A DNA stretch of 64,000 nt from Limisphaerales bacterium (GTDB lineage Bacteria > Verrucomicrobiota > Verrucomicrobiia > Limisphaerales > AAA164-E04). Below, piece by piece: positions 1-12,012 of this stretch; the first letter of the stretch is position 1; each line of letters opens with the position of its first letter. The notes under the pieces were generated by a model, which was not told where the DNA came from, ran no database searches, and saw only the letters and a list, made by a program, of their open reading frames with translations. Location of the stretch: the NCBI GenBank assembly GCA_024761205.1, contig JAMASS010000026.1, positions 1 to 64,000 of the forward strand, read 5' to 3'. A program made the position numbers and the translations under genes.

Positions 1-660
1 CGAGGGCCCGGGTTGCGCCTCACCCAAGCCAACCGCACCATCACAAGCGGGCAAACTTCGACCGCTTCCACCTACACACCCAATCGACGCAATGAGCATC
101 CCACACGCACCGTCGCCAGTCCCGATCGGCATCCAAGGACTAGCCGGCCCAATGGCAAACGGCACCGTCAAAGGCTTTGGTAACCGATCGAGACAAAGAA
201 TATTTTCACGAAAACATCAGCGTGAACAACGGTTTGGGGCCGGCCTCTCCGACGGCACCCGTCAGCTCGGCGGGCAAGGTCTACGTCCCCAAAACTCCGG
301 AAGTTTGCACGTATGACACCGATGGCAACCACAAGAGTAGCGGCCGATGGGATTACGTTAGGGACGCCGAAAATCGCCTCAATCAAATGAGCCTCTTGGC
401 AGCCGAGCGCCGTCTGGAGTTCACCTGCGACTACCAGGACAGAAGGGGCGACAAGAAGGTCCACACCCGTGCCATCGGCGGCATGTTGCCAACGGACATC
501 AGATTCGTTTACGATGGCTGGAACCTCATTACCGAAGCTGATGCCAACGACAATTTGATCTGCAGCTACGCCTGGAGCCATGATCTAAAGTGGCACGTTC
601 ACTGGAGCCGGCGGCGGCGGTCTACTCAAGATTGTAAACCTCGATCAGTTACTGCAGCAA
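1..660 (+). pseudogene. RHS-repeat protein fragment, frameshifted and cut by the window edge
   Basis: The reading frame from about 177 encodes a typical verrucomicrobial RHS core. It shows the YDTDGN start of a YD repeat, then DAENRL, a CDYQDRR block equivalent to YDYQGRR, and RFVYDGWNLI followed by a degraded YLWGLDL motif. At about 575-590 the frame breaks: the expected glycine-rich continuation (SGTFTGAGGGGLLKIVN) lies in the next frame. The part upstream of 177 also reads in a different frame. RHS proteins are large secreted or surface proteins, often carrying C-terminal toxins. Only the end of the core is inside the window, so the 5' state is unknown. The frame breaks argue for a pseudogene. 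Confidence 0.75.
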
Positions 661-876
661 AGCAGTGCTTTAGGGAACACATCAAAGAGCAGCAGAGTCG
701 CTTGTGTAAGCTCGAAAAGCTGGAAACGATTTCTGATTATGACGTCGGACTGCAGCGGCCCGGTTTTCCTGGGCAAAGCGAAGCAGAGTTAGATGACCCT
801 CAAGGGACAATCAGTGAAACAAGATTCTATATAGGTTACTATATATTTAGGTTGATCTCTCTCACGTTCTTCAAAG

Positions 877-1306
877 ATGGAACTGACGTTACTTACAAAG
901 AAAGCTATCATCAACCTAATCGACACCTATGGTCCGCAAGAGAAATACGCTGGAGGTTTCCAATTCATTAAAGGGATTTTTGGAAGCTTAGAAAATCATG
1001 GTGTCGCAAAGGGAGTGAAACGGGGATAATTTTGCTGCTGCTAAAGGAAGATGGATTCTGAAAGCTTTAGCAAGCTCGCTGAAGAAATGGATTCCATGAA
1101 GGGACGATGCTTGCCACAAATCCAGAAACAAAGGAAAGAGCATTGTATGTATCCTTCAGCGCGTATTTAGGTGAAGGCATTCCGTAGCCGGGTTGTGCTA
1201 TCAAGAAGCACTGCACAACTTAGTTAAAGATTATGGGAGCCTTGAAATTTACTTAGATTTTACAAGAGATGGAAAACTACGAGAAATAGAAGTATTGAGT
1301 AATTAG
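877..1306 (+). other. Decayed tail behind the RHS core, possible toxin/immunity remnants
   Basis: This AT-richer stretch holds two short open pieces. One is a 50-codon frame from ATG 877 to TAA 1029, starting MELTLLTKKAIINLIDTYG. The other is a 44-codon open stretch ending at TAG 1306 and reading YGSLEIYLDFTRDGKLREI near its end. Neither has a clear ribosome-binding site and neither was recognised. Position directly behind an RHS core and a lower GC content suggest a variable C-terminal tip or an immunity gene that has decayed; this is inference only. Confidence 0.3.
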
Positions 1307-1310
1307 TATT

Positions 1311-1781
1311 CTAAAGAATACCTGTAGTGTTCGGAAAATAGATTAGTTCCCACTTTGCGCGGCGTTCGACTTTGATCTCGCGAACTAGCCGCTCAAAGCG
1401 GCGGTAAACTGAGCTTGGGTTTCCACATTGCACAATTAGATTTTTTATATATCGAAACCGTTTGTGTTGCTGCGATAAGCGGAACCCACCTCGTTCGGAT
1501 AGGGTGGGACCACCCAGCGGCTGTTTCCTCTGTCGAAGGCGACTTTTCCGATGCTGGTCTCGGTTACGGAACACCCTTTTAGGTCTCCCATTATTTGGAA
1601 AATAGAAGAGACTCATTGGGGAGGGGACGTGATTCAAAGTGGTGAGGTGGGGCAAGATTTTATCAATCCACCATCTCGCAGCGCGGGGCATCCTGCCTGT
1701 GCTATCCATCCTCCGTAACTCATCGAAGAAGAACGGCTCGAGAGACTTTCGCCTCATCTCTTTGCTATCGGGACTCTCCAC
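1311..1781 (-). CDS. Hypothetical protein, doubtful
   Basis: A 156-codon open frame on the minus strand, rich in Arg, Lys and Pro, with no signal peptide, membrane segment or motif I recognise. It lies between the RHS debris and the pyrophosphatase gene in a region without other coding signal. The composition (basic, few acidic residues) is like a spurious frame, so it may be non-coding. Confidence 0.18.
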   Translation of the reverse strand: MESPDSKEMRRKSLEPFFFDELRRMDSTGRMPRAARWWIDKILPHLTTLNHVPSPMSLFYFPNNGRPKRVFRNRDQHRKSRLRQRKQPLGGPTLSERGGFRLSQQHKRFRYIKNLIVQCGNPSSVYRRFERLVREIKVERRAKWELIYFPNTTGIL

Positions 1782-1900
1782 ATTGAATTGCGGTTTTTGG
1801 GAGTTTTGAATGCTCAGGACGTCCTTGACTAAGGATCCTTCTTAATCTGCACTGGGGCTAGCTATGACTGCAATGCCAGCAACAGATGATTTCCTAAACT

Positions 1901-3934
1901 GTGAGTGAGATTCTTGTCATTGGTCACCGCAACCCGGATACTGATTCTATTTGCTCAGCCATCGGTTACACGGAGTTCAAGCGGTTGATGGGCGCCAAAC
2001 GTGTGATCGCGGCCCGGTGCGGTGATATTAATGACCGCATTGATTTTGTTCTGCGCCACTTTGGGTTTGCCCCCCCTCGGTTTGTCGCTGACGTGTCTCC
2101 CAAAGTCCGTGACGTGATGCAGCATCAGGTCTCCTGTATTTCTCCCGAGGCAACCTCGACGGAGGCGCTAGCAATGATGGAGGCTGGGAACATCCGGGTC
2201 TTGCCGATTGTGGACGAAGATCGTTTTTGTCATGGATTGATTTCGGTGTTCAAGATGGGCAAGTTTTTGATTTCGAGGGGTGGCCGGAACTTTAGCTCCC
2301 GCCGGGTGGTGGCTAGTATCCGAGCCTTGGCCCGTACCTTGGACGCAAAGCTTCATTTCGGTGTTTACGTCGATCGAGAGGAGGATCTGGTTCTGATGGT
2401 TGGTGCGATGAGTCAGGAATCCTTTGCCAGCCGTCTTTCTGACTACCCGCTAGAGAAACTGATTGTGGTGGTCGGTGACCGTCGCAATATCCAAGAGATC
2501 GCGATCAGGAACCGAGTTCGAGCGGTCATTGTGACTGGAGACCTCGAGGTCGATGACGAAGTGGTTGATTATGCGCAGCAGAATGAGGTGAGTTTGTTGG
2601 TATCACCTCATGATTCGGCGACGACTGTGATGTTGTGCCGATCAGCGATCAGCGTTGAGCATATGAGGCACGAGCACTTCCTGAGTTTTCGAGAAGATGA
2701 GACTTTGTCTTTGATCCGAGATGTTGCCGTGGCATCACAGTTCCAGGCATTTCCTGTCTTGGATGCCTATAAGCGGGTTGTCGGTGTGTTGTCCAAAACG
2801 GATCTTTTGAAACGTGTGGATCGGAAGTTGATCTTGGTGGATCACAATGAACTGAGTCAGGCGGTCAAGGGAGCGGATCAGGTTGAGATCATCGAGATCA
2901 TCGATCATCATCGGATCGGGGCCTTCACTTCCAATCAACCCATGCTCTTCGTGAATCGTCCGGTTGGTTCGACTAGTACGATCATTGCTGATTTGTTCGA
3001 GACCCACAAAGTCCCCTTGTCGAAGCCGGTAGCCGGGTTGCTCATGGCCGGTTTGGTGTCGGATACGCTGAACCTTACCTCACCGACGACTACCGAGACC
3101 GATGCGGTGGTTTTGTCAAGGCTGGCTGCGATCACGGGTATTGATCCGACCACATTTACCGAACAGCTGTTTAGCTCGGGATCGGTCCTCACCGGACGAC
3201 CAGCGCAAGAGGCCATCACGGCCGATTGCAAAGAGTACGCTGAGATCGGTAAGAAATTCAGTGTGGCCCAGATTGAGGAGCTTGGATTCAAGCATTTTTG
3301 GGAACGCAAAGATGCCGTTATGGAGGCCTTGGAATTGTACCGCAGCGAAAACAGTTACCTCTTTTCCAGCCTTCTGGTGACTGATGTCGTGCGACAAACC
3401 TCACTCCTGCTGGTGGCCGGTCCGGAAGATTTCCGCTCCCGAATTCATTACCCGGTGGTGTCGGATCGGGTTTATGAACTCTCGGGGGTGGTGTCGCGTA
3501 AGAAGCAGTTGCTCCCCTACTTAGTGCATTGTTTGAAGCACTTGGTGAACGGCGCCACATCCATGATCGCAGGCCGGACGCCGGAGGATATTGTGGAGAC
3601 GAATCAGGAGATTCTCACCTTTGGGGATGGAAATGTGCGGGTCGCTATCTCTTTGGTTGAAGATCATAGTGTACACGAAATCCTCCAACGCCGTGCCGAA
3701 ATCGTTAGAGTCTTGGAGGAAGCGTGTGCGGCGGAGGCAGTGCGGGCCGCCGGCTTGATCGTCTCGGAGACCAATGGCGATAGAAACATTTTAATCGTCG
3801 GTGGTGGTGATGATGCCTTGTTGTCCCGGATCAACCTCCCCAAGTTGGAGGACAGTGTTTTTGGCTTGGAACCCAAGGGAGATTCCAAGCAGGCGGCTCT
3901 GTCGGTATTTGAGGGAGTTTGGCCCGCTGGCTGA
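1901..3934 (+). CDS. Manganese-dependent inorganic pyrophosphatase (family II) with CBS and DRTGG domains and tandem DHHA2 domains
   Basis: Family II pyrophosphatases hydrolyse cytoplasmic pyrophosphate with Mn/Co; CBS-containing forms are regulated by adenine nucleotides. Visible blocks: GHRNPDTDSI (residues 8-17), first CBS about 67-125, DRTGG-like about 127-245, second CBS about 250-308, VDHNE at 313-317, IIDHHRIGAF with the DHH signature at 333-342, VGSTST at 355-360, GLVSDTLNLTSPT at 384-396, and DHHA2 about 446-537 ending in VSRKKQ. The protein is 677 residues against about 545 for usual CBS forms. The extra end (about 574-664) reads like a second DHHA2 copy (RVAISLVEDHS, RRAEIVRVLEEA, ILIVGGGDD, EPKGDSKQ). 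Start is GTG with no strong ribosome-binding site. The catalytic assignment is firm; the role of the duplicate is unknown. Confidence 0.9.
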   Translation: MSEILVIGHRNPDTDSICSAIGYTEFKRLMGAKRVIAARCGDINDRIDFVLRHFGFAPPRFVADVSPKVRDVMQHQVSCISPEATSTEALAMMEAGNIRVLPIVDEDRFCHGLISVFKMGKFLISRGGRNFSSRRVVASIRALARTLDAKLHFGVYVDREEDLVLMVGAMSQESFASRLSDYPLEKLIVVVGDRRNIQEIAIRNRVRAVIVTGDLEVDDEVVDYAQQNEVSLLVSPHDSATTVMLCRSAISVEHMRHEHFLSFREDETLSLIRDVAVASQFQAFPVLDAYKRVVGVLSKTDLLKRVDRKLILVDHNELSQAVKGADQVEIIEIIDHHRIGAFTSNQPMLFVNRPVGSTSTIIADLFETHKVPLSKPVAGLLMAGLVSDTLNLTSPTTTETDAVVLSRLAAITGIDPTTFTEQLFSSGSVLTGRPAQEAITADCKEYAEIGKKFSVAQIEELGFKHFWERKDAVMEALELYRSENSYLFSSLLVTDVVRQTSLLLVAGPEDFRSRIHYPVVSDRVYELSGVVSRKKQLLPYLVHCLKHLVNGATSMIAGRTPEDIVETNQEILTFGDGNVRVAISLVEDHSVHEILQRRAEIVRVLEEACAAEAVRAAGLIVSETNGDRNILIVGGGDDALLSRINLPKLEDSVFGLEPKGDSKQAALSVFEGVWPAG

Positions 3935-3978
3935 GCGAGGAGCTAAAAATGGGCATTGAGCCACTCAGACGAGGACAA

Positions 3979-5555
3979 TCACAGTCCGAAGGTCTTTTCG
4001 TGCCTCGTTTTCGGTGGATGCCAGGATTGTCTCAGACGGTTGATATCTACGGAGTCCTCTAGCACCTCGAGTTGTCGAGCCGATGGTTCCGGAGGTTTCG
4101 AAAAATAGTCGAGGATGATTTTCACGAAAAACCGGCGACCAACAGTCTCGAGCTTTCGTCGGTGGATAATCTCAGGGGATAGGTGAGGTGTCAGGGCTCG
4201 ACTGGGAATCGTCTTAGGAATGCCCTTCTTGGTTTTTTCTGATGCCACGGAGTCGCAGGCAGAGCTTAACAAGGTGGTGTCGAGAAAGGGATGTGAGGAT
4301 TTAATGCCGCTGCCGCCTCATAGCGTTCGACGGCTGCGGCCAGGTAGGGCCGCCGTGATTGTATGTATAACAGGCGTCTCGGAGGCACTCTGTGTCTTGC
4401 GGTTACTCGTTCTCCCATTGCTGCTTGATTCGTTCGTCGCCGGTTGACATTGGTGTGAATTGTCTCAGGGCCTGCTCGCGAGGGATAGTTCAATTTTCCA
4501 GTCGGCGCAACAGGAAGCTCAGGAGCCTCCCGGGAAGAGCGAGCGACTCCTGTAAAATCTGGCTTCTGCGGTGATTTCACGGACTGCGGTTGGCATACCA
4601 TACTCGGAGGCGAGAAGTGGTGGGGCAGTTGGTGCTCTGGAAAACGACCAGATTGCCATCGACACTGTCTAGTAAGACAGGGATACCTCTCTTCTAGGCT
4701 ATCGAGGTGAGAAAAGGATCGAGCCTACGAGGTGCGTGCAGGGGAAAGGACTATCCAGTTTTGACGGTAGGGTCTTATTTGGAGAGAGAGTCTCCGTCAC
4801 GCAATCGAGAACCGACTGAATCAACGTGATGGACCTGCTCTCCTCGCAGGCAGGATCACGGTTGCCGGATATTAGCGAAAAGGTCTTCAGGTTGCCGGTC
4901 GAGCTGTTGGCTGGCGACAGATGAGACCGATGCAGAGCCGTAAAATGCCAGTTTCCGCGGGACTGGTGATGCGACAGCCAATGGCTGCAGCAAAATGGTC
5001 GTAAAATATCCATTTGTAGTCTGCGTCCGAGTCCGACCTTTAGTTCGGGGCTAATGTCGATGAATGGCGACTGTCCGTCCCTGCCCGTGCAGGATGACCC
5101 TGCTGGGACACGATGAATCTCTTGGAAGAAGGTGCTTGTTTTGTTGATCCCTTTGAGAAGCCCAAGCAGAAAATTTGCCTTGCGACCACGGTTCAACGTG
5201 GGGGTATCACCAGAATCTTGAGGACCTTGATCTCAGAGGCAAAAGCGAAGTGTTGGCGGTCTTTGTAGTAATAGAGTGGTTTGGTGCCGAACGGCGTCCC
5301 AACCGAGGATGATTTGATGCCGCGTTTCGTCCCAAATTACCAAAGCAAATTCGCTGACGAGTGAAGGGGAATGGAAAGATAAACTTCGTGAGTGCTCAGC
5401 TGGAAGCGGCTGACTCTCCGTTGACCAAGGGGCGGGATAGATTGATGGGAACACCGAAAACGCGGTAGGTGGTCTAGTGCCAAAAACTGACCATAAAGAG
5501 AGCAACCATCGGAAGGAGCATTCCAGCCAAGGCATAAATGCCAAATTGTCGAATC
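3979..5555 (-). pseudogene. Asparagine synthetase / lasso-cyclase-like protein, multiply disrupted
   Basis: Pieces of a class-B asparagine synthetase follow in order on the minus strand but in changing frames. They are FGIYALAG near 5540, ALVIWDE then FGTKPLYYYKDRQHFAFASE at about 5240-5340, an H-R-VPAGSS...RDGQ glutaminase-end motif near 5090, SSVASQQLD and KTFSLISGNRDPACEE at about 4830-4960 (region of the SGGLDSS synthetase loop, now degraded), and HPFLDTTLLSSACDS...KKGIPK with PHLSPEIIHRRK at about 4150-4290. The N-terminal part has also lost sequence. The parent enzyme would amidate or cyclise a carboxylate using ATP. It sits 15-30 bases after a PqqD-like pseudogene, an arrangement typical of lasso-peptide biosynthesis. 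No function is expected now. Confidence 0.75.
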
Positions 5556-5585
5556 CGGTTTATTGGTTAAGTCTCTGCCCTTTAA

Positions 5586-5871
5586 TTAAGTTAGCGTGAG
5601 CATCTTTTGTTCGATCATTGTCGATATCATCTGCGATAGATTCTTGCAAATCATTGTCTCTTCGACCTCGAACTCTTCGATCAGACGATTCAGTGCCTCT
5701 TGAATCAGTACAACCGGAGGTGAGAACTGCTACATCCGGGTCCTAGTTTCATTCAAACCGTAGCAAGACTCGTCCCCCAAATGAAGGATCACCGCTTCGC
5801 CCTCCAACTCTCGCAGCAAAACATCATTGTCCGTGAAGCCCCCCCCTTTTTTCAAAATCAATTTCAGACAT
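5586..5871 (-). pseudogene. PqqD-like peptide-chaperone protein (RiPP recognition element), frameshift plus stop
   Basis: From ATG 5871 the frame reads MSEIDFEK and then hits a run of eight C on the plus strand (5839-5846), where it shifts. The next frame gives NDVLLRELEGEAVILHLGDE, a Y-GLNE-T motif, a TAG where Trp is usual, and LIEEFEVEETMI...ISTMIEQKML before TAA. This is the standard layout of PqqD-family proteins of about 90-95 residues, which bind leader peptides of ribosomal peptides. The following gene is the asparagine-synthetase-like wreck. One base too many in the poly-C tract and a Trp-to-stop change inactivate it. Confidence 0.75.
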
Positions 5872-5924
5872 CGACGGGAGGATTGCTATCAATCTGGCGC
5901 CCAGCGGGTCTACTGGAATGCAAG

Positions 5925-5987
5925 TTAGACGACTGTGCTGGGGTATGACGGGGTGCCCAACTCCCTTGGTGGTTTCCACCCGGTCAT
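5925..5987 (-). other. 20-codon ORF upstream of the PqqD remnant, overlapping the CotH stop codon
   Basis: An ATGA overlap with the stop of the upstream CotH gene opens a 20-codon frame, MTGWKPPRELGTPSYPSTVV. Its WKPP-x-x-LG part faintly resembles lasso-precursor leaders (Y-x-x-P-x-L...G), and its position directly before PqqD is where a precursor would lie. It is too short and has no core peptide, so it is at best a decayed precursor and may be chance. Confidence 0.15.
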
Positions 5988-8122
5988 AGATTGGCCACTC
6001 CGGGGGAGGGGACGGCGATTTGAAACGTGGCTACTTCTGGAGCTGTTCGCGAAAATGCCTCATCCGCTTTTGATTTGCCGAATTTCACTGCGTCGAGGAT
6101 GACGTTTCCGTTGGCATCAGTGTCGGACAGCAGCAGTCTTTCGCCCTTGTTCGAGAGTCGGAAGTTTGCGTGGAGATCTTCGGGATTCTTGTCGTCACCG
6201 TCTGCCCAGACGATGAGCGTCTCTCCTGCTTTGAGCGTGGTGCCTTCAGGAAACATCCATTTCCGAAGTTGTTTGGCGCTGTCAGAAAGATGAAATCCGG
6301 AAAGGTCGACGGTTTGCGTGCTAATATTTTGAAGTTCAATCCAGTCGCTAAATTCCCCTTTGGAATCGGCGATGGTTCTTGAATTCGAACTCATGATTTC
6401 GGAGATGACAATGGCGCTGGTTTCCGCCACTGGTGCGGTGACCTGGAATCTTAGCGCCGCAAATTCAGCACCCCGCGGCATGAAGTATGTGGTGCCAGTG
6501 GCTGTGTCTGCTCTTGCCTCGACATAGTAGCGAAGTTCGGTGCCGACGGTTTGTCGGGGAAGGGTTGCTTCGAAACGATTCAGTGAAACCGCTTCCATTG
6601 CGACATGGTGGAACTGTGGCTCGTTGTTTGCGACCCAATAGAGTAGCACGGAGGCTGGTGGAACCTCGGGATCGACGGTTGCGAGGAACCGAATCTCATC
6701 GATGGTTTCAATCGCTTGGCTGGCGGCTCGATCTGCGGGTTGTACGCTTACGGACAGGATCTTTGGTGTCGGCCGGTTGATATTAGGATCATTCAGCAGT
6801 CCTTTGGCGCGCTCTGTCACGAAGCGCTGCAGACCAAGCAAGCGCTCTCCGCCTTGATCAAGACCGGAAACAAAATCTTCGTAGCTGTAGAGCTTGCGCG
6901 TGTCTTCCTGGATATCTTTCTCGATGAGTTGTCGATATCGTTCGACAACCGGGCCCAACACGTCCCAATCGAGCCATTCTTCAGCGATGGTTCTGACATG
7001 AGCGAGATACCTCGCGCGGAGTTCCGGAATCGCAAAGAGGAAACGGATCAATGGTTTGGAGTCATCAGACTCGCCCGAAATCGGGCTCAGCTCCAGTCCG
7101 GCTCCACCTCGGAATCCGGGACCGCCGGGAGTCTTGAACGTTTCGTTATTATCATGGGGGACCATGTGAAATCGGCCGTTCGTATCCTGGTAAAACATGA
7201 AATCGCTGGCGCGAATCCAATAGCCATCGTTGTCAATAAGTACGTTCTCGAGGGCGATGAACCAAAGTGCGCGATCGATATTGAGTACGGGAGCAAGCAC
7301 GGTTTCATAATTCTCTTGATTGGACGATGCGAGTGATTTGGTCAGATTAATGAGATCGCTCCAGGCCTGTCTTTCATCGGTAGCCGACAGCAATTCATAT
7401 TGTCGGGGATAATTCGCCGGTGAGTCCCCCCGATAGGCGAGGCCCATGCTTAAACGCGGGTTTGCGGGCGCTTTCCACCGAACACCCTTTCGGGTGCCGT
7501 ACCAGTCGTCGAGAAAGTCCTTATTGAACTGCTGGGAATTGATGTAGATGCCCCAATTCTCGCCGTTGACTACGACCCGGACGTAATTCGCCTTGGCGGC
7601 AGGGAGATAGTTGCGAGCGATATAATTAAAGAGCATTTCTCGCATGAAGGTTGGATCGGTGTGCGCGTTGAGGAGATTGAGAGTTTTGTAACCGTAGAGC
7701 TGCTGCTTACCGTATTCGTAGTCGAGCGAGATGTTGAGGGATCGCTTTCGATCTTGAGGTACTCGGCTGGAGGAGGTGTTTCCTCGGAGGCGTACGCCTA
7801 CTTTATCGTAAACCTTCCCGTCCACGATCAGCTTGGCTGCAATCTCAAATCCTGTCCGATAGAAGTCACCGAGCTCATCGTTCCATTCGTCGGTGTCGAA
7901 TTTGAAGAAGAAGGTTCGGAGAACGGTCTCGTCATAGAGGTTTGCATCAGGGAAGTACTGCACATCGTTATAGCTGATCCTTTTGCCCGGCTGAGCGGGT
8001 TCGGAGGGCTGGGTATTGCCACCACGTCCTTGTGCCCAAAGGACTGTGGTGGAGAGCAAAAAGGCCATCATGAGTCCAGATCGGAACCCAATGACGGCAA
8101 TGTCGTGACATGGCGTCGTCAT
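5984..8122 (-). CDS. Secreted CotH-kinase-fold protein with C-terminal lamin-tail domain
   Basis: A 712-residue protein with an N-terminal hydrophobic segment (MMAFLLSTTVLWA) suggesting export; a start at Met18 or Met19 is possible. Residues about 55-440 match the CotH family (FFFKFDTDEWNDEL, VGVRLRGNTSS, KTLNLLNAHTDPTFMREML, NWGIYINSQQFNKDFL, ALENVLIDNDGYW). CotH proteins can phosphorylate surface proteins. The position of the canonical DxDxxxG motif here reads PHDNNETF (about residue 320), a variant form. The C-terminal part (about 575-712) is a lamin-tail domain (ISEIMSSNSRTIADSKG, DWIELQN, DLSGFHLSD). It is divergent from the gene at 8380. Extracellular location is inferred; substrate unknown. 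Confidence 0.85.
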   Translation of the reverse strand: MTTPCHDIAVIGFRSGLMMAFLLSTTVLWAQGRGGNTQPSEPAQPGKRISYNDVQYFPDANLYDETVLRTFFFKFDTDEWNDELGDFYRTGFEIAAKLIVDGKVYDKVGVRLRGNTSSSRVPQDRKRSLNISLDYEYGKQQLYGYKTLNLLNAHTDPTFMREMLFNYIARNYLPAAKANYVRVVVNGENWGIYINSQQFNKDFLDDWYGTRKGVRWKAPANPRLSMGLAYRGDSPANYPRQYELLSATDERQAWSDLINLTKSLASSNQENYETVLAPVLNIDRALWFIALENVLIDNDGYWIRASDFMFYQDTNGRFHMVPHDNNETFKTPGGPGFRGGAGLELSPISGESDDSKPLIRFLFAIPELRARYLAHVRTIAEEWLDWDVLGPVVERYRQLIEKDIQEDTRKLYSYEDFVSGLDQGGERLLGLQRFVTERAKGLLNDPNINRPTPKILSVSVQPADRAASQAIETIDEIRFLATVDPEVPPASVLLYWVANNEPQFHHVAMEAVSLNRFEATLPRQTVGTELRYYVEARADTATGTTYFMPRGAEFAALRFQVTAPVAETSAIVISEIMSSNSRTIADSKGEFSDWIELQNISTQTVDLSGFHLSDSAKQLRKWMFPEGTTLKAGETLIVWADGDDKNPEDLHANFRLSNKGERLLLSDTDANGNVILDAVKFGKSKADEAFSRTAPEVATFQIAVPSPGVANL

Positions 8123-8379
8123 AGCGGATTTGACGAGGTCTCTTGGGTGGAAGTTACAGTTGTGTGACGGAAAATGGAACGCGTTGTTGTCGTATCAGTG
8201 TTCACAACGAGTTGCAGTTGCTACCGGTGTGTTGATGGAGACAGCTCGATCCGGCGGTCTGAAATTCAGTGAAACCAGTCTGGAGTCTAGCGGGTCATAA
8301 TGTCTTTCGTTCAGCAGGATCCTGCTGTGGCTTGAGCGGATATGAAATCGTTGATTGGAGACGAAAGAGAGTGAAGGAA

Positions 8380-9480
8380 ATGACTAGTTTTGGAAATACA
8401 ATCAGTCGGGCCGTCGTCTTGGTGGCCTTGATGGCGGCTGGAAATCTAGCCGTGGCTAAGAGGTCGGCGGTGCTCCAGTCTGCTGGGCCCATAGCGTTTG
8501 CGCCCGGTGGCGTGTTGGTTGCGGCAGACCCGAAAGCGGCCACCTTGGTCGCGATGGAGACCGGCGACACAAAGGCCGCCGGGGGAGGCGCGATAAAGAT
8601 AGAGAGGGTAGATCGCAAGATTGCTTCGGTTTTGGGTGCGACTGCCGATGCGATTCGGATTGTCGATTTAGCTGTCAATCCGGTGTCCCATAATGCTTAT
8701 CTTTCGGTCGCGCGCGGTCGGGGTGCAGACGCCACGGCTGTCATTGTCCGGATCGACGGTTCGGGTGATATCGATGTGTTCGAATTCGACCCTAAGAAGG
8801 TCTCTCATGTAGTGTTGCCAAATGCCCCCGAAGACCGAGTCACCGGTCAGGGGCGTCGAGCGCGCAATCAGCGGCTCGAATCGATCACCGATCTTTCCTA
8901 TGTCGATGGAAACATCATCGTGGCGGGACTTTCAAACGAGGAATTTGCTTCCACACTCCGGTCCATTCCGTTCCCTTTTGAGTCTGTTGGAGAGGGTTCC
9001 AGCATTGAGATCTATCATGGCGCCCATGGGCGTTATGAAACGCGGTCCCCAATTCGGACATTCGTTCCTTATTCGATCGATGGGGAGTCTCACATTCTGG
9101 CGGCCTATACATGTACGCCCCTGGTGAAGGTCCCGGTCGCCCAACTCAAGCCGGGTGCTCACGTCAAAGGAACGACGATTGCCGAACTCGGAAACCGTAA
9201 CCGACCGCTGGATATGGTGGTTTATAGTAAAAGCGGTAAGGATTGGTTTCTTATGGCCAATAGCAGTCGAGGTGTGATGAAGATCTCGACCGATAATTTG
9301 GCCGATGCTCCTTCGATCATTTCGCGAGTTGAGGGGGGCGGGGTCAAGGGGCAGCCTTATGAAACAATAAAGTCTTGGCCGGAGATATTTCAATTGGCGC
9401 AGTTGGATGAAGATTATGCCTTGGTTTTGCGTGGGAACGCCGACGGCGCATTGGATCTGGAATCGCTCCAATATCCGTGA
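8380..9480 (+). CDS. Exported protein of unknown function, possible beta-propeller
   Basis: I chose ATG 8380, preceded by GAAGGA, because it puts a clean signal peptide at the N-terminus (AVVLVALMAAGNLAVA); an upstream in-frame start at 8269 would bury it. The mature part (about 340 residues) repeats short strand-rich units such as IRIVDLAVNPVSHNAYLSVA, ITDLSYVDGNIIVAGLSNEE and ILAAYTCTPLVKVPV, which looks like a propeller that tracks a surface. No catalytic motif was recognised. The stop overlaps the GTG start of the next gene by GTGA, so the two are translationally coupled. Confidence 0.7.
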   Translation: MTSFGNTISRAVVLVALMAAGNLAVAKRSAVLQSAGPIAFAPGGVLVAADPKAATLVAMETGDTKAAGGGAIKIERVDRKIASVLGATADAIRIVDLAVNPVSHNAYLSVARGRGADATAVIVRIDGSGDIDVFEFDPKKVSHVVLPNAPEDRVTGQGRRARNQRLESITDLSYVDGNIIVAGLSNEEFASTLRSIPFPFESVGEGSSIEIYHGAHGRYETRSPIRTFVPYSIDGESHILAAYTCTPLVKVPVAQLKPGAHVKGTTIAELGNRNRPLDMVVYSKSGKDWFLMANSSRGVMKISTDNLADAPSIISRVEGGGVKGQPYETIKSWPEIFQLAQLDEDYALVLRGNADGALDLESLQYP

Positions 9481-10745
9481 TTTTGCGCCTTTGTCTCATT
9501 ACCGCCATTGCCTGTGTGGTTGGCAGTCTTGCTCACGGTGAATCGCACAATGAGGAAGAAACGAATCTATCGCTTTCTGCTGGTGAGTCCGTTTCTTCCT
9601 CTCTTCTCTCTCCTAAGTCGATCATCGAGCTTCGGCTTTTTGGTGAGTCGAGCTCCGATCACTCGTTGGTTCTTAGTGGTCTTCTGCTAACAGAGCCAGA
9701 GCGAACCGCAGTTCAAAAGTTCTCGCCTGCGGATTGGCAGCGTGTGTTTCCCGTCCGAGTCGTTTCGAGTGACGGGTCGGCGATCGAAATCTTGCCCGCT
9801 ATGTCGGGTAGTTATCGACTGCTGGATGGCGGAGTCGAGTTTGTTCCGCGATTCGGATTTGAGATTGGCGTTCGATATCAAGCGGAATTCGATTCGTCGG
9901 CAATGAGGTTGAGATTGAATCGCCGTGGGGCTCCCGCGCGTCCCACTTCTGGTGCTGAGCGTGACTTAGTGTGGGAGCATTGCATGAAGCGTTCACTGGT
10001 TAATCCCTCTACGGAGGTTGTCGCGGTGTATCCGTCGGCCACGGTGCTTCCAGAGAATCTCCTTAAGTTCTACCTGCATTTCTCGGCTCCCATGACCGTA
10101 GGCATGGCTTACCGCCACATCCATCTGGTCCGCGAGGGTGGCACTGAGGTTGTGGCCCCTTTTCTGCAGCTGGATGAGGAATTATGGGATCAGGCGGGGC
10201 AGCGGCTGACGGTGCTGATAGACCCGGGTAGAATTAAGAGTGGTTTGTTGCCACGCGAGGAAGTGGGGCCTGCCTTGGAGGAGGGCAAAGTCTATCGTCT
10301 GGTGATTGATGCTGAGTGGACGGATGCCATGGGGCTGCCCTTGCTGGCTCCGTTTGAGAAACGCTTCCGCGTCGTCATCCCCGATGACCGACAGCCCAAG
10401 ATGTCGGAGTGGAAATTATCCGTTCCCTCGGCGGGCACTCGGGAAACGCTGGTGGTTCGATTTCCAGAGCCACTGGATCACGCCTTGCTGCGCCGCTTGC
10501 TGTGGGTTTCTGACCGGGAAGATCGTGAGGTCGAAGGTAGGATCACGATTGGAGATGACGAAATGACTTGGATATTGGCTCCGGTTCGCCCTTGGGCGGC
10601 GGGCATCTATGCTTTGTGTTCGGAGAACACATTGGAAGATTTGGCTGGCAATAGTCTGGGACGGCGGTTCGAGGTTGATTCTTTTCAGAGTGTGTCTCGA
10701 CGAGTCGAACGGGATATGTTGCGAAAGGCGTTTCAGATTAGGTGA
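9477..10745 (+). CDS. Exported protein with bacterial Ig-like (SbsA-type) segments, unknown function
   Basis: GTG start overlaps the preceding stop. Signal peptide is clear (LRLCLITAIACVVGSLAHG). Residues about 185-300 and 310-400 resemble SbsA-type Ig-like modules, which typically carry a phrase such as LPENLLKFYLHFSAPM and later EPLDHALLRR and EDLAGNSLGRRFEVD. Such modules occur in cell-surface proteins of PVC bacteria. It probably acts together with its coupled partner at 8380, outside the cytoplasm. No enzyme motif seen. Confidence 0.7.
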   Translation: MILRLCLITAIACVVGSLAHGESHNEEETNLSLSAGESVSSSLLSPKSIIELRLFGESSSDHSLVLSGLLLTEPERTAVQKFSPADWQRVFPVRVVSSDGSAIEILPAMSGSYRLLDGGVEFVPRFGFEIGVRYQAEFDSSAMRLRLNRRGAPARPTSGAERDLVWEHCMKRSLVNPSTEVVAVYPSATVLPENLLKFYLHFSAPMTVGMAYRHIHLVREGGTEVVAPFLQLDEELWDQAGQRLTVLIDPGRIKSGLLPREEVGPALEEGKVYRLVIDAEWTDAMGLPLLAPFEKRFRVVIPDDRQPKMSEWKLSVPSAGTRETLVVRFPEPLDHALLRRLLWVSDREDREVEGRITIGDDEMTWILAPVRPWAAGIYALCSENTLEDLAGNSLGRRFEVDSFQSVSRRVERDMLRKAFQIR

Positions 10746-10818
10746 GTCCGTAGTCGTCGAAGAACTGTGCTTTAACGCAGCGTTCCTGAGGCGAGGTGAG
10801 CCGCCGCCGAGCCGCTGC

Positions 10819-10833
10819 AGCGAAGGAGGACGG
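10819..10833 (+). repeat. Core of a dispersed intergenic repeat (copy 1)
   Basis: AGCGAAGGAGGACGG lies in the 250-base gap before the sugar-transport operon. The same 15 bases recur at 19444-19458 and, inverted with one mismatch, at 23489-23503. Flanks are GC-rich and partly similar (GAGG, CGTCC). It looks like a degenerate dispersed intergenic element; the full boundaries cannot be set from three copies. Confidence 0.4.
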
Positions 10834-10998
10834 AATCCATCTGCGTTGCGCTGTTAGCTAAGTAACTCCGTGATTCACTGCGCATGATCTGAGCGAGGGC
10901 GGCTCTCGCCGGAGTCTCGCCCCACCTTTTTTGAAAAGGTAACCGCACAGTGGTTTATTGACAATTTGAGGATATTCTGCAATTTAGAACGGATTCCT

Positions 10999-12012
10999 AT
11001 GAAAAGTCGAAGTGTTTTTCTTTTTGTCCTATCCTTGGTCGGAGTGCTCTTGCTGATCGGCTGCGGTCAGCCCGATTCGGGCAACCCTAAGATCGCATTC
11101 GTCAGCAATAGCTTTGCTTCCTTTTGGACCATTGCCCAACGGGGAGTTGAGAAAGCGGGCGCGGATCTGGGAGTGGATGCGGAAGTCTATATGCCCGTGG
11201 GGGGAATCACCGATCAGAAACGGATTCTGGAAGATCTGGTGACTCAGGGGGTTGACGGCATCGCTGTGAGTCCCATTGCCCCGGATGACCAGATGGAATT
11301 TTTGAATCAGATAGCCGAACACACCAAATTAATCACTCAAGATTCCGATGCACCGGGTTCAAACCGAATGGTGTATATCGGAATGGATAATTACAAAGCG
11401 GGGCGGATGTGCGGGGAGTTGGTGAAGGAGGCCTTGCCTGATGGCGGATCGATAATGATCTTTGTCGGAAGGATAGAACAGGATAACGCACGTAGGCGTC
11501 GGCAGGGGGTCATTGATGAACTTCTCGGAAGGGAATATGATCCGGAGAATTTTGATCCGCCCGGCAAAGTCCTTTCCGGCGGAGGATTTGAGATCTTAGG
11601 GACGATGACTGACCAGTTTGATCGGGCCAAGGGGAAAGCTAACGTTGAAGATACTTTGTCGCGATATCCAGATATCAAGGGGATGGTGGGGCTCTTTGTC
11701 TACAACCCGCCTTTGGCCCTTGAGGCCTTGGAACAAGCGGGGAAACTCGGGCAAGTCAAAGTCATAGCGTTCGATGAGGCGGAGTCGACACTTCAAGGAA
11801 TCATCGATGGAACGGTCCATGGTACGGTAGTCCAGGATCCCTATATGTATGGCTACAAGTCGGTCGAGGTCCTGAAGCAGATTATTGACGGTGATCTCTC
11901 TTCGATACCCGAGAACAAATTTATCGACATCCCCGCGCGTTACATTCTCAGGGACAATGTTGAAGCGTTTTGGGCGGATCTCAAGGAGAAGATTGTGGAC
12001 GACGCTGAGTAG
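10999..12012 (+). CDS. Sugar ABC transporter, substrate-binding lipoprotein
   Basis: The start at 10999 is chosen because it begins a lipoprotein signal peptide ([13 protein letters not shown]) ending in the lipobox LLIGC; an in-frame ATG at 10966 adds an unlikely extension. The mature part is a periplasmic-binding protein of the ribose/xylose type ([19 protein letters not shown] near the N-terminus, [48 protein letters not shown]). It is anchored to a membrane and hands a sugar to the permease. It is the first gene of a three-gene operon with ATPase and permease; spacing to the next start is 17 bases. The ligand cannot be read from sequence. Confidence 0.88.

What the first reader, a model, noticed from the sequence alone, without database searches (positions are those of the whole stretch)
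1901..3934. Family II pyrophosphatase with apparent tandem DHHA2 domains
After the normal DHHA2 end (VSRKKQ at about 531-536), another 130 residues repeat the same plan: G-x-x-x-x-VAxx, a long helix RRAEIVRVLEEA opposite RKDAVMEALELY, AGLIVSET opposite SSLLVTDV, ILIVGGGDD opposite LLLVAGPED and a terminal GDSKQ opposite SRKKQ. CBS-type pyrophosphatases normally stop after one. The second copy lacks the Arg/Lys pair SRKK, so it may have lost substrate binding and become regulatory or dimerising.
Basis: partly seen in the sequence, partly recalled or inferred. Interest (0 to 1): 0.6.

Follow-up and report, generated by a model that had tools for sequence, protein, structure and literature searches.

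The report
Pyrophosphatase with a duplicated lid domain
A regulated enzyme that breaks down pyrophosphate carries, so far in one bacterial genus only, a second and catalytically incomplete copy of the "lid" domain that closes its active site; this is a real but modest variation on a known enzyme, and it could test how lid movement controls the enzyme.

Summary
Confirmed. The gene at 1901-3934 (+) encodes a 677-aa CBS-type family II pyrophosphatase (DHH, CBS-DRTGG-CBS insert, DHHA2) followed by a second, diverged DHHA2 domain (d2, about aa 554-673). Four lines show homology: a Pfam match (2.7e-4; above the curated cut-off in a sister species); profile-profile E 2.4e-13 (score 79 versus at most 22 in 200 shuffles); a d2-only profile that finds ordinary phylum DHHA2 domains at E 7.5e-13; and an AlphaFold2 model made from d2 sequences alone that matches the DHHA2 domain of solved pyrophosphatases (Z 16.2, 1.9 A over 115 residues). 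The architecture occurs in 4 of 4 genomes of the genus; the d2 profile found it nowhere else in about 320 order and 387 phylum genomes. The substrate arginine of the lid is lost in all four d2 copies. d2 evolves much faster than the first copy but stays under purifying selection. The enzyme is the only known type of pyrophosphatase found in the genome. Most likely d2 is a non-catalytic, regulatory or structural lid paralogue that limits lid motion; this function is inferred, not shown. New variant of a known kind.

The parts
1901..3934 (+). CBS-type family II (Mn-dependent) inorganic pyrophosphatase gene with tandem DHHA2 domains, 677 aa, GTG start
   Evidence: NCBIfam PRK14869.2-2 604 bits over cut-off 601
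1901..2098 (+). DHH domain, first part (aa 1-66), motif GHRNPDTD with metal ligands H9, D13, D15
   Evidence: Pfam DHH spanning 4-384; aligned to B. subtilis PPase 1k23; invariant in 19 homologues
2105..2809 (+). regulatory insert: CBS1 (aa about 69-116), DRTGG (143-245), CBS2 (about 252-303)
   Evidence: Pfam CBS two stretches, DRTGG; C. perfringens-type regulatory part 3l31 matches 66-311
2822..3136 (+). DHH domain, second part (aa 308-412), VDHNE, DHH and SDT motifs
3137..3508 (+). first DHHA2 domain (d1, aa 413-536), with K444 (= B. subtilis K205) and R533/K534 (= R295/K296); catalytic residues complete. Its C-terminal helix runs on to about aa 550
   Evidence: Pfam 422-541; PDB alignment; invariant in homologues; helix 533-550 in the model
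3560..3919 (+). second DHHA2 domain (d2, aa about 554-673): same order of strands and helices as d1; K444 -> E570, R533 -> S662, K534 -> K663; genus-specific conserved patch ED..(V/I)H.(V/I)LQR at 587-597
   Evidence: conserved columns

Best explanation
Shown: the protein is a CBS-type family II pyrophosphatase with all catalytic motifs present in DHH and the first DHHA2 (d1), plus a second, homologous DHHA2 (d2) fused directly to the C-terminal helix of d1. The extra domain was found in one genus only and is kept in all four of its genomes. Inferred: d2 arose by an in-frame tandem duplication of the 3' end of the gene, or by fusion with another CBS-PPase 3' end, in the ancestor of the genus. 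Because d2 lacks the substrate arginine it should not complete an active site. It most likely works as a non-catalytic partner of the real lid: attached to d1's last helix, it packs against d1 or a neighbouring subunit in the tetramer's DHHA2 region. There it would set how freely d1 opens and closes over the DHH active site, and so tune turnover and the response to AMP/ADP and ATP/Ap4A sensed by the CBS domains. The anatomy is about 97% sure; the functional step (lid damping or scaffolding) about 45-50%.
For: Homology of d2 to DHHA2 by four routes (30/34/35). Found in 4/4 genomes of the genus; no d2-type match in seven other genomes of the family, in 320 order genomes (the only other hit below 1e-12, G514/L063, is an ordinary single DHHA2), or in 387 phylum genomes. 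Arg lost in 4/4 d2 copies. d2 diverges much faster than d1 (31-53% against 65-81% amino-acid identity) yet pN 0.33-0.47 against pS 0.71-0.84. Only known type of PPase found in the genome: no PF00719 and no PF03030 match, so catalysis by DHH+d1 is presumably kept. Published work on CBS-PPases proposes that DHHA2 mobility, constrained in the tetramer, is what regulation acts on (PMC10742508).
Against: No experiment; no reliable inter-domain placement of d2 (full-length model pTM 0.56, no PAE available). d2 varies quickly, which also fits a weakly constrained appendage. Three of four d2 copies keep the last substrate Lys and one (L004) keeps both Lys, so some phosphate binding is not excluded. 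Tree placement of d2 is on a very long branch; duplication from the gene's own d1 is not rejected (p-AU 0.25) but not shown.
Confidence: 0.5

Rival explanations
1. d2 is a decoy lid: it competes with d1 for the DHH active-site cleft and, lacking the Arg, gives a closed but inactive state (autoinhibition).
For: Same fold as d1; loss of the Arg in all four species.
Against: Fast divergence, including substrate-side positions; no evidence that the DHH-facing surface is preserved; the linker between d1 and d2 is short (helix 533-550, then d2 from about 554).
Confidence: 0.15
2. d2 has been recruited for a new binding task (a protein partner or small ligand), carried by its genus-specific ED..(V/I)H.(V/I)LQR patch.
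For: Invariant polar residues E587, D588, H592, Q596, R597 in an otherwise fast-changing domain; H592 and Q596 have no equivalent residue in this protein's d1.
Against: Only four sequences; the patch may simply be structural at the strand-helix junction.
Confidence: 0.2
3. d2 is a decaying duplicate without function.
For: Low identity between species (31-53%) and missing substrate Arg.
Against: Open frame kept in 4/4 species; pN clearly below a near-saturated pS; fold-level conservation.
Confidence: 0.13

Closest known systems
CBS-type family II pyrophosphatase (CBS-PPase; NCBIfam PRK14869.2, e.g. dhPPase, C. perfringens and M. thermoacetica enzymes)
   Same: DHH with CBS-DRTGG-CBS insert and one complete DHHA2; all catalytic motifs present
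   Different: a second, catalytically incomplete DHHA2 of about 120 residues at the C-terminus
Canonical family II pyrophosphatase (B. subtilis, 1k23/1wpm)
   Same: DHH and DHHA2 catalytic core; d2 also has this DHHA2 fold
   Different: no CBS/DRTGG insert, single DHHA2
Yeast cytosolic exopolyphosphatase (2qb6/2qb7)
   Same: DHHA2-type C-terminal domain, next-best fold match of d2 (Z 11.8)
   Different: single DHHA2, different substrate

Membership tests
CBS-type family II pyrophosphatase | DHH domain with H9/D13/D15, VDHNE, DHH, SDT motifs | tested here: met
   Pfam DHH 9.1e-22; invariant columns
CBS-type family II pyrophosphatase | CBS pair and DRTGG inserted in the DHH domain | tested here: met
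   3l31 match at 66-311
CBS-type family II pyrophosphatase | DHHA2 with Lys (DCKEY) and SRKK | tested here: met
   d1: K444, R533, K534, aligned to 1k23 K205, R295, K296
CBS-type family II pyrophosphatase | pyrophosphatase activity, tetramer, regulation by adenine nucleotides | not testable with these tools
   needs purified enzyme
DHHA2 domain (PF02833), for d2 | sequence-profile match over the curated cut-off | tested here: inconclusive
   window copy 21.7 bits, below the 27-bit cut-off but E 2.7e-4; L004 copy 28.1 bits, over it; L005 20.4; L003 no match
DHHA2 domain (PF02833), for d2 | DHHA2 fold | tested here: met
   Foldseek E 1.9e-7; VIA Z 16.2, 1.9 A, 115 residues; predicted, not solved
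DHHA2 domain as a catalytic lid, for d2 | substrate residues Lys, Arg, Lys | tested here: not met
   E/S/K, E/S/Q, K/S/K, D/N/K in the four species; Arg absent in all

The most novel reading that the evidence does not exclude
The second DHHA2 is a dedicated regulatory pseudo-domain, a decoy or brake lid or a new ligand/partner site, that adds a further layer of control to the organism's only detected pyrophosphatase.
Probability: 0.3. Interest if true: 0.5.

Novelty: new variant of a known kind. Interest (0 to 1): 0.33.

Why it matters
How CBS-PPases pass the AMP/Ap4A signal to the active site is unresolved, and a current proposal (PMC10742508) is that the mobility of the DHHA2 lid is the controlled quantity. 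A natural enzyme with an extra, non-catalytic lid fused to the real one is a ready-made test of that proposal: compare it with its d2-deleted form. It is also a clean case of a catalytic domain duplicated and then stripped of a key substrate residue inside one genus.

Tried and rejected
Chance resemblance: rejected (200 column shuffles and a reversed control; d2-only profile search). Assembly artefact: rejected, the architecture is intact in four separate genomes. Other tandem DHHA2 proteins: none recognised among the listed matches of a PF02833 scan of 313 order genomes (the list was cut, so not exhaustive) and none by the d2 profile in 320 order or 387 phylum genomes; other phyla were not systematically searched. 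Origin of d2: the tree puts d2 on a very long branch and does not settle it; grouping with own-genus d1 or family d1 is not rejected (p-AU 0.25 and 0.35). Papers naming tandem, second, two or duplicated DHHA2: none in the held library. Plasmid records: only distant relatives; the best whole-length matches end at query residue 541-549. Rfam scan of window 1-12000: nothing.

Full report
Observation. The ORF 1901-3934 (+) encodes 677 residues. Pfam gives DHH (split, 4-384), CBS, DRTGG and DHHA2 (422-541, 9.2e-26); NCBIfam names it a putative manganese-dependent inorganic diphosphatase (PRK14869.2-2, 604 bits over a cut-off of 601). Alignment to B. subtilis PPase (1k23) places K444, R533 and K534 at K205, R295 and K296 (that these three bind substrate is from general knowledge of the family). 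Residues 537-677 are extra. Alone, residues 540-677 match DHHA2 with E 2.7e-4; in the sister species L004 the same part passes Pfam's cut-off (28.1 bits).

Is it more than chance? A profile of the four genus copies against the first-copy profile gives E 2.4e-13; 200 column shuffles reach at most score 22 against 79 observed. The d2 profile, which contains no first-copy domain, finds ordinary DHHA2 domains across the phylum at up to 7.5e-13 and finds the first copies within the same proteins. AlphaFold2 on the d2 alignment alone (4 sequences, mean pLDDT 75.5) gives a fold whose best solved matches are family II PPases, aligned on their DHHA2 domain (Foldseek 1.9e-7; VIA Z 16.2, 1.9 A over 115 residues). 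In the full-length model the two copies show the same order of elements: d1 E443-448, E451-460, H464-483, E488-495, E500-506, H509-512, E519-521, E524-528, H533-550; d2 E570-574, E579-588, H591-595/H598-611, E616-623, E629-634, H638-642, E648-650, E653-656, H663-673.

Distribution. All four genomes of the genus have it. In the same family, those proteins of the other two genera that could be read to the end stop shortly after SRKKQ, as do the order relatives examined (tails of 17-32 residues counted from SRKKQ). In 320 order genomes the d2 profile finds only the four genus members above 200 bits; the one other hit below 1e-12 (49.7 bits) is an ordinary single DHHA2. The organism appears to be a verrucomicrobial bacterium (inferred from named relatives L032-L034, which fall among the order's sequences in the tree).

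Sequence evolution. Between genus members d1 is 65-81% identical and d2 31-53%; pN in d2 is 0.33-0.47 with pS 0.71-0.84. d2 thus changes much faster but is still constrained (pS is near saturation, so the ratio is only a bound). The substrate triad Lys/Arg/Lys of d1 becomes E/S/K here, and E/S/Q, K/S/K, D/N/K in the other three species: the Arg is lost in all. A patch ED..(V/I)H.(V/I)LQR (587-597) is conserved in d2 and only partly shared with d1. d2 sequences form one clade, and the L002-L003 grouping matches the first-copy tree, consistent with one origin and vertical descent. Whether d2 was copied from the gene's own d1 cannot be told: not rejected (p-AU 0.25), not supported.

Function. The genome (95% complete) has no detected family I PPase (PF00719) and no membrane PPase (PF03030), and one DHHA2 gene, so this enzyme is presumably the working PPase and its catalytic parts are intact. 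Published work states that CBS-PPases are tetramers in which lid (DHHA2) motion is constrained and suggests that regulation acts on lid mobility (PMC10742508). The simplest reading is that d2, attached to the last helix of the real lid and lacking the substrate arginine, adds structural constraint or a regulatory contact there. This step is inference; deletion of d2 is the test. Rivals are a decoy lid, a new binding site, or slow decay.

Novelty. No paper in the held library mentions a tandem, second, two or duplicated DHHA2; the library lacks most subscription journals. I file it as a new variant of CBS-PPase, of moderate interest.

Noticed in passing
L055/L056 (G002 C6:19449-21047, - strand): One genus member carries a second, distant CBS-PPase-like protein (37% identical to the query over residues 250-548; 565-aa frame) with a single DHHA2.
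   Followed up: partly
window 5984-8122 (-): A 712-aa protein with a CotH kinase domain and a lamin tail domain (Pfam 3.8e-36 and 3.4e-18).
   Followed up: no
window 177-971 (+): An ORF with RHS/YD-repeat-like stretches (RFVYDGWNLITEADANDN), no significant Pfam match; perhaps a gene remnant.
   Followed up: no
window 3935-5983: About 2 kb between the pyrophosphatase and the next clear gene with no ORF that looks like a gene and no Rfam match.
   Followed up: partly
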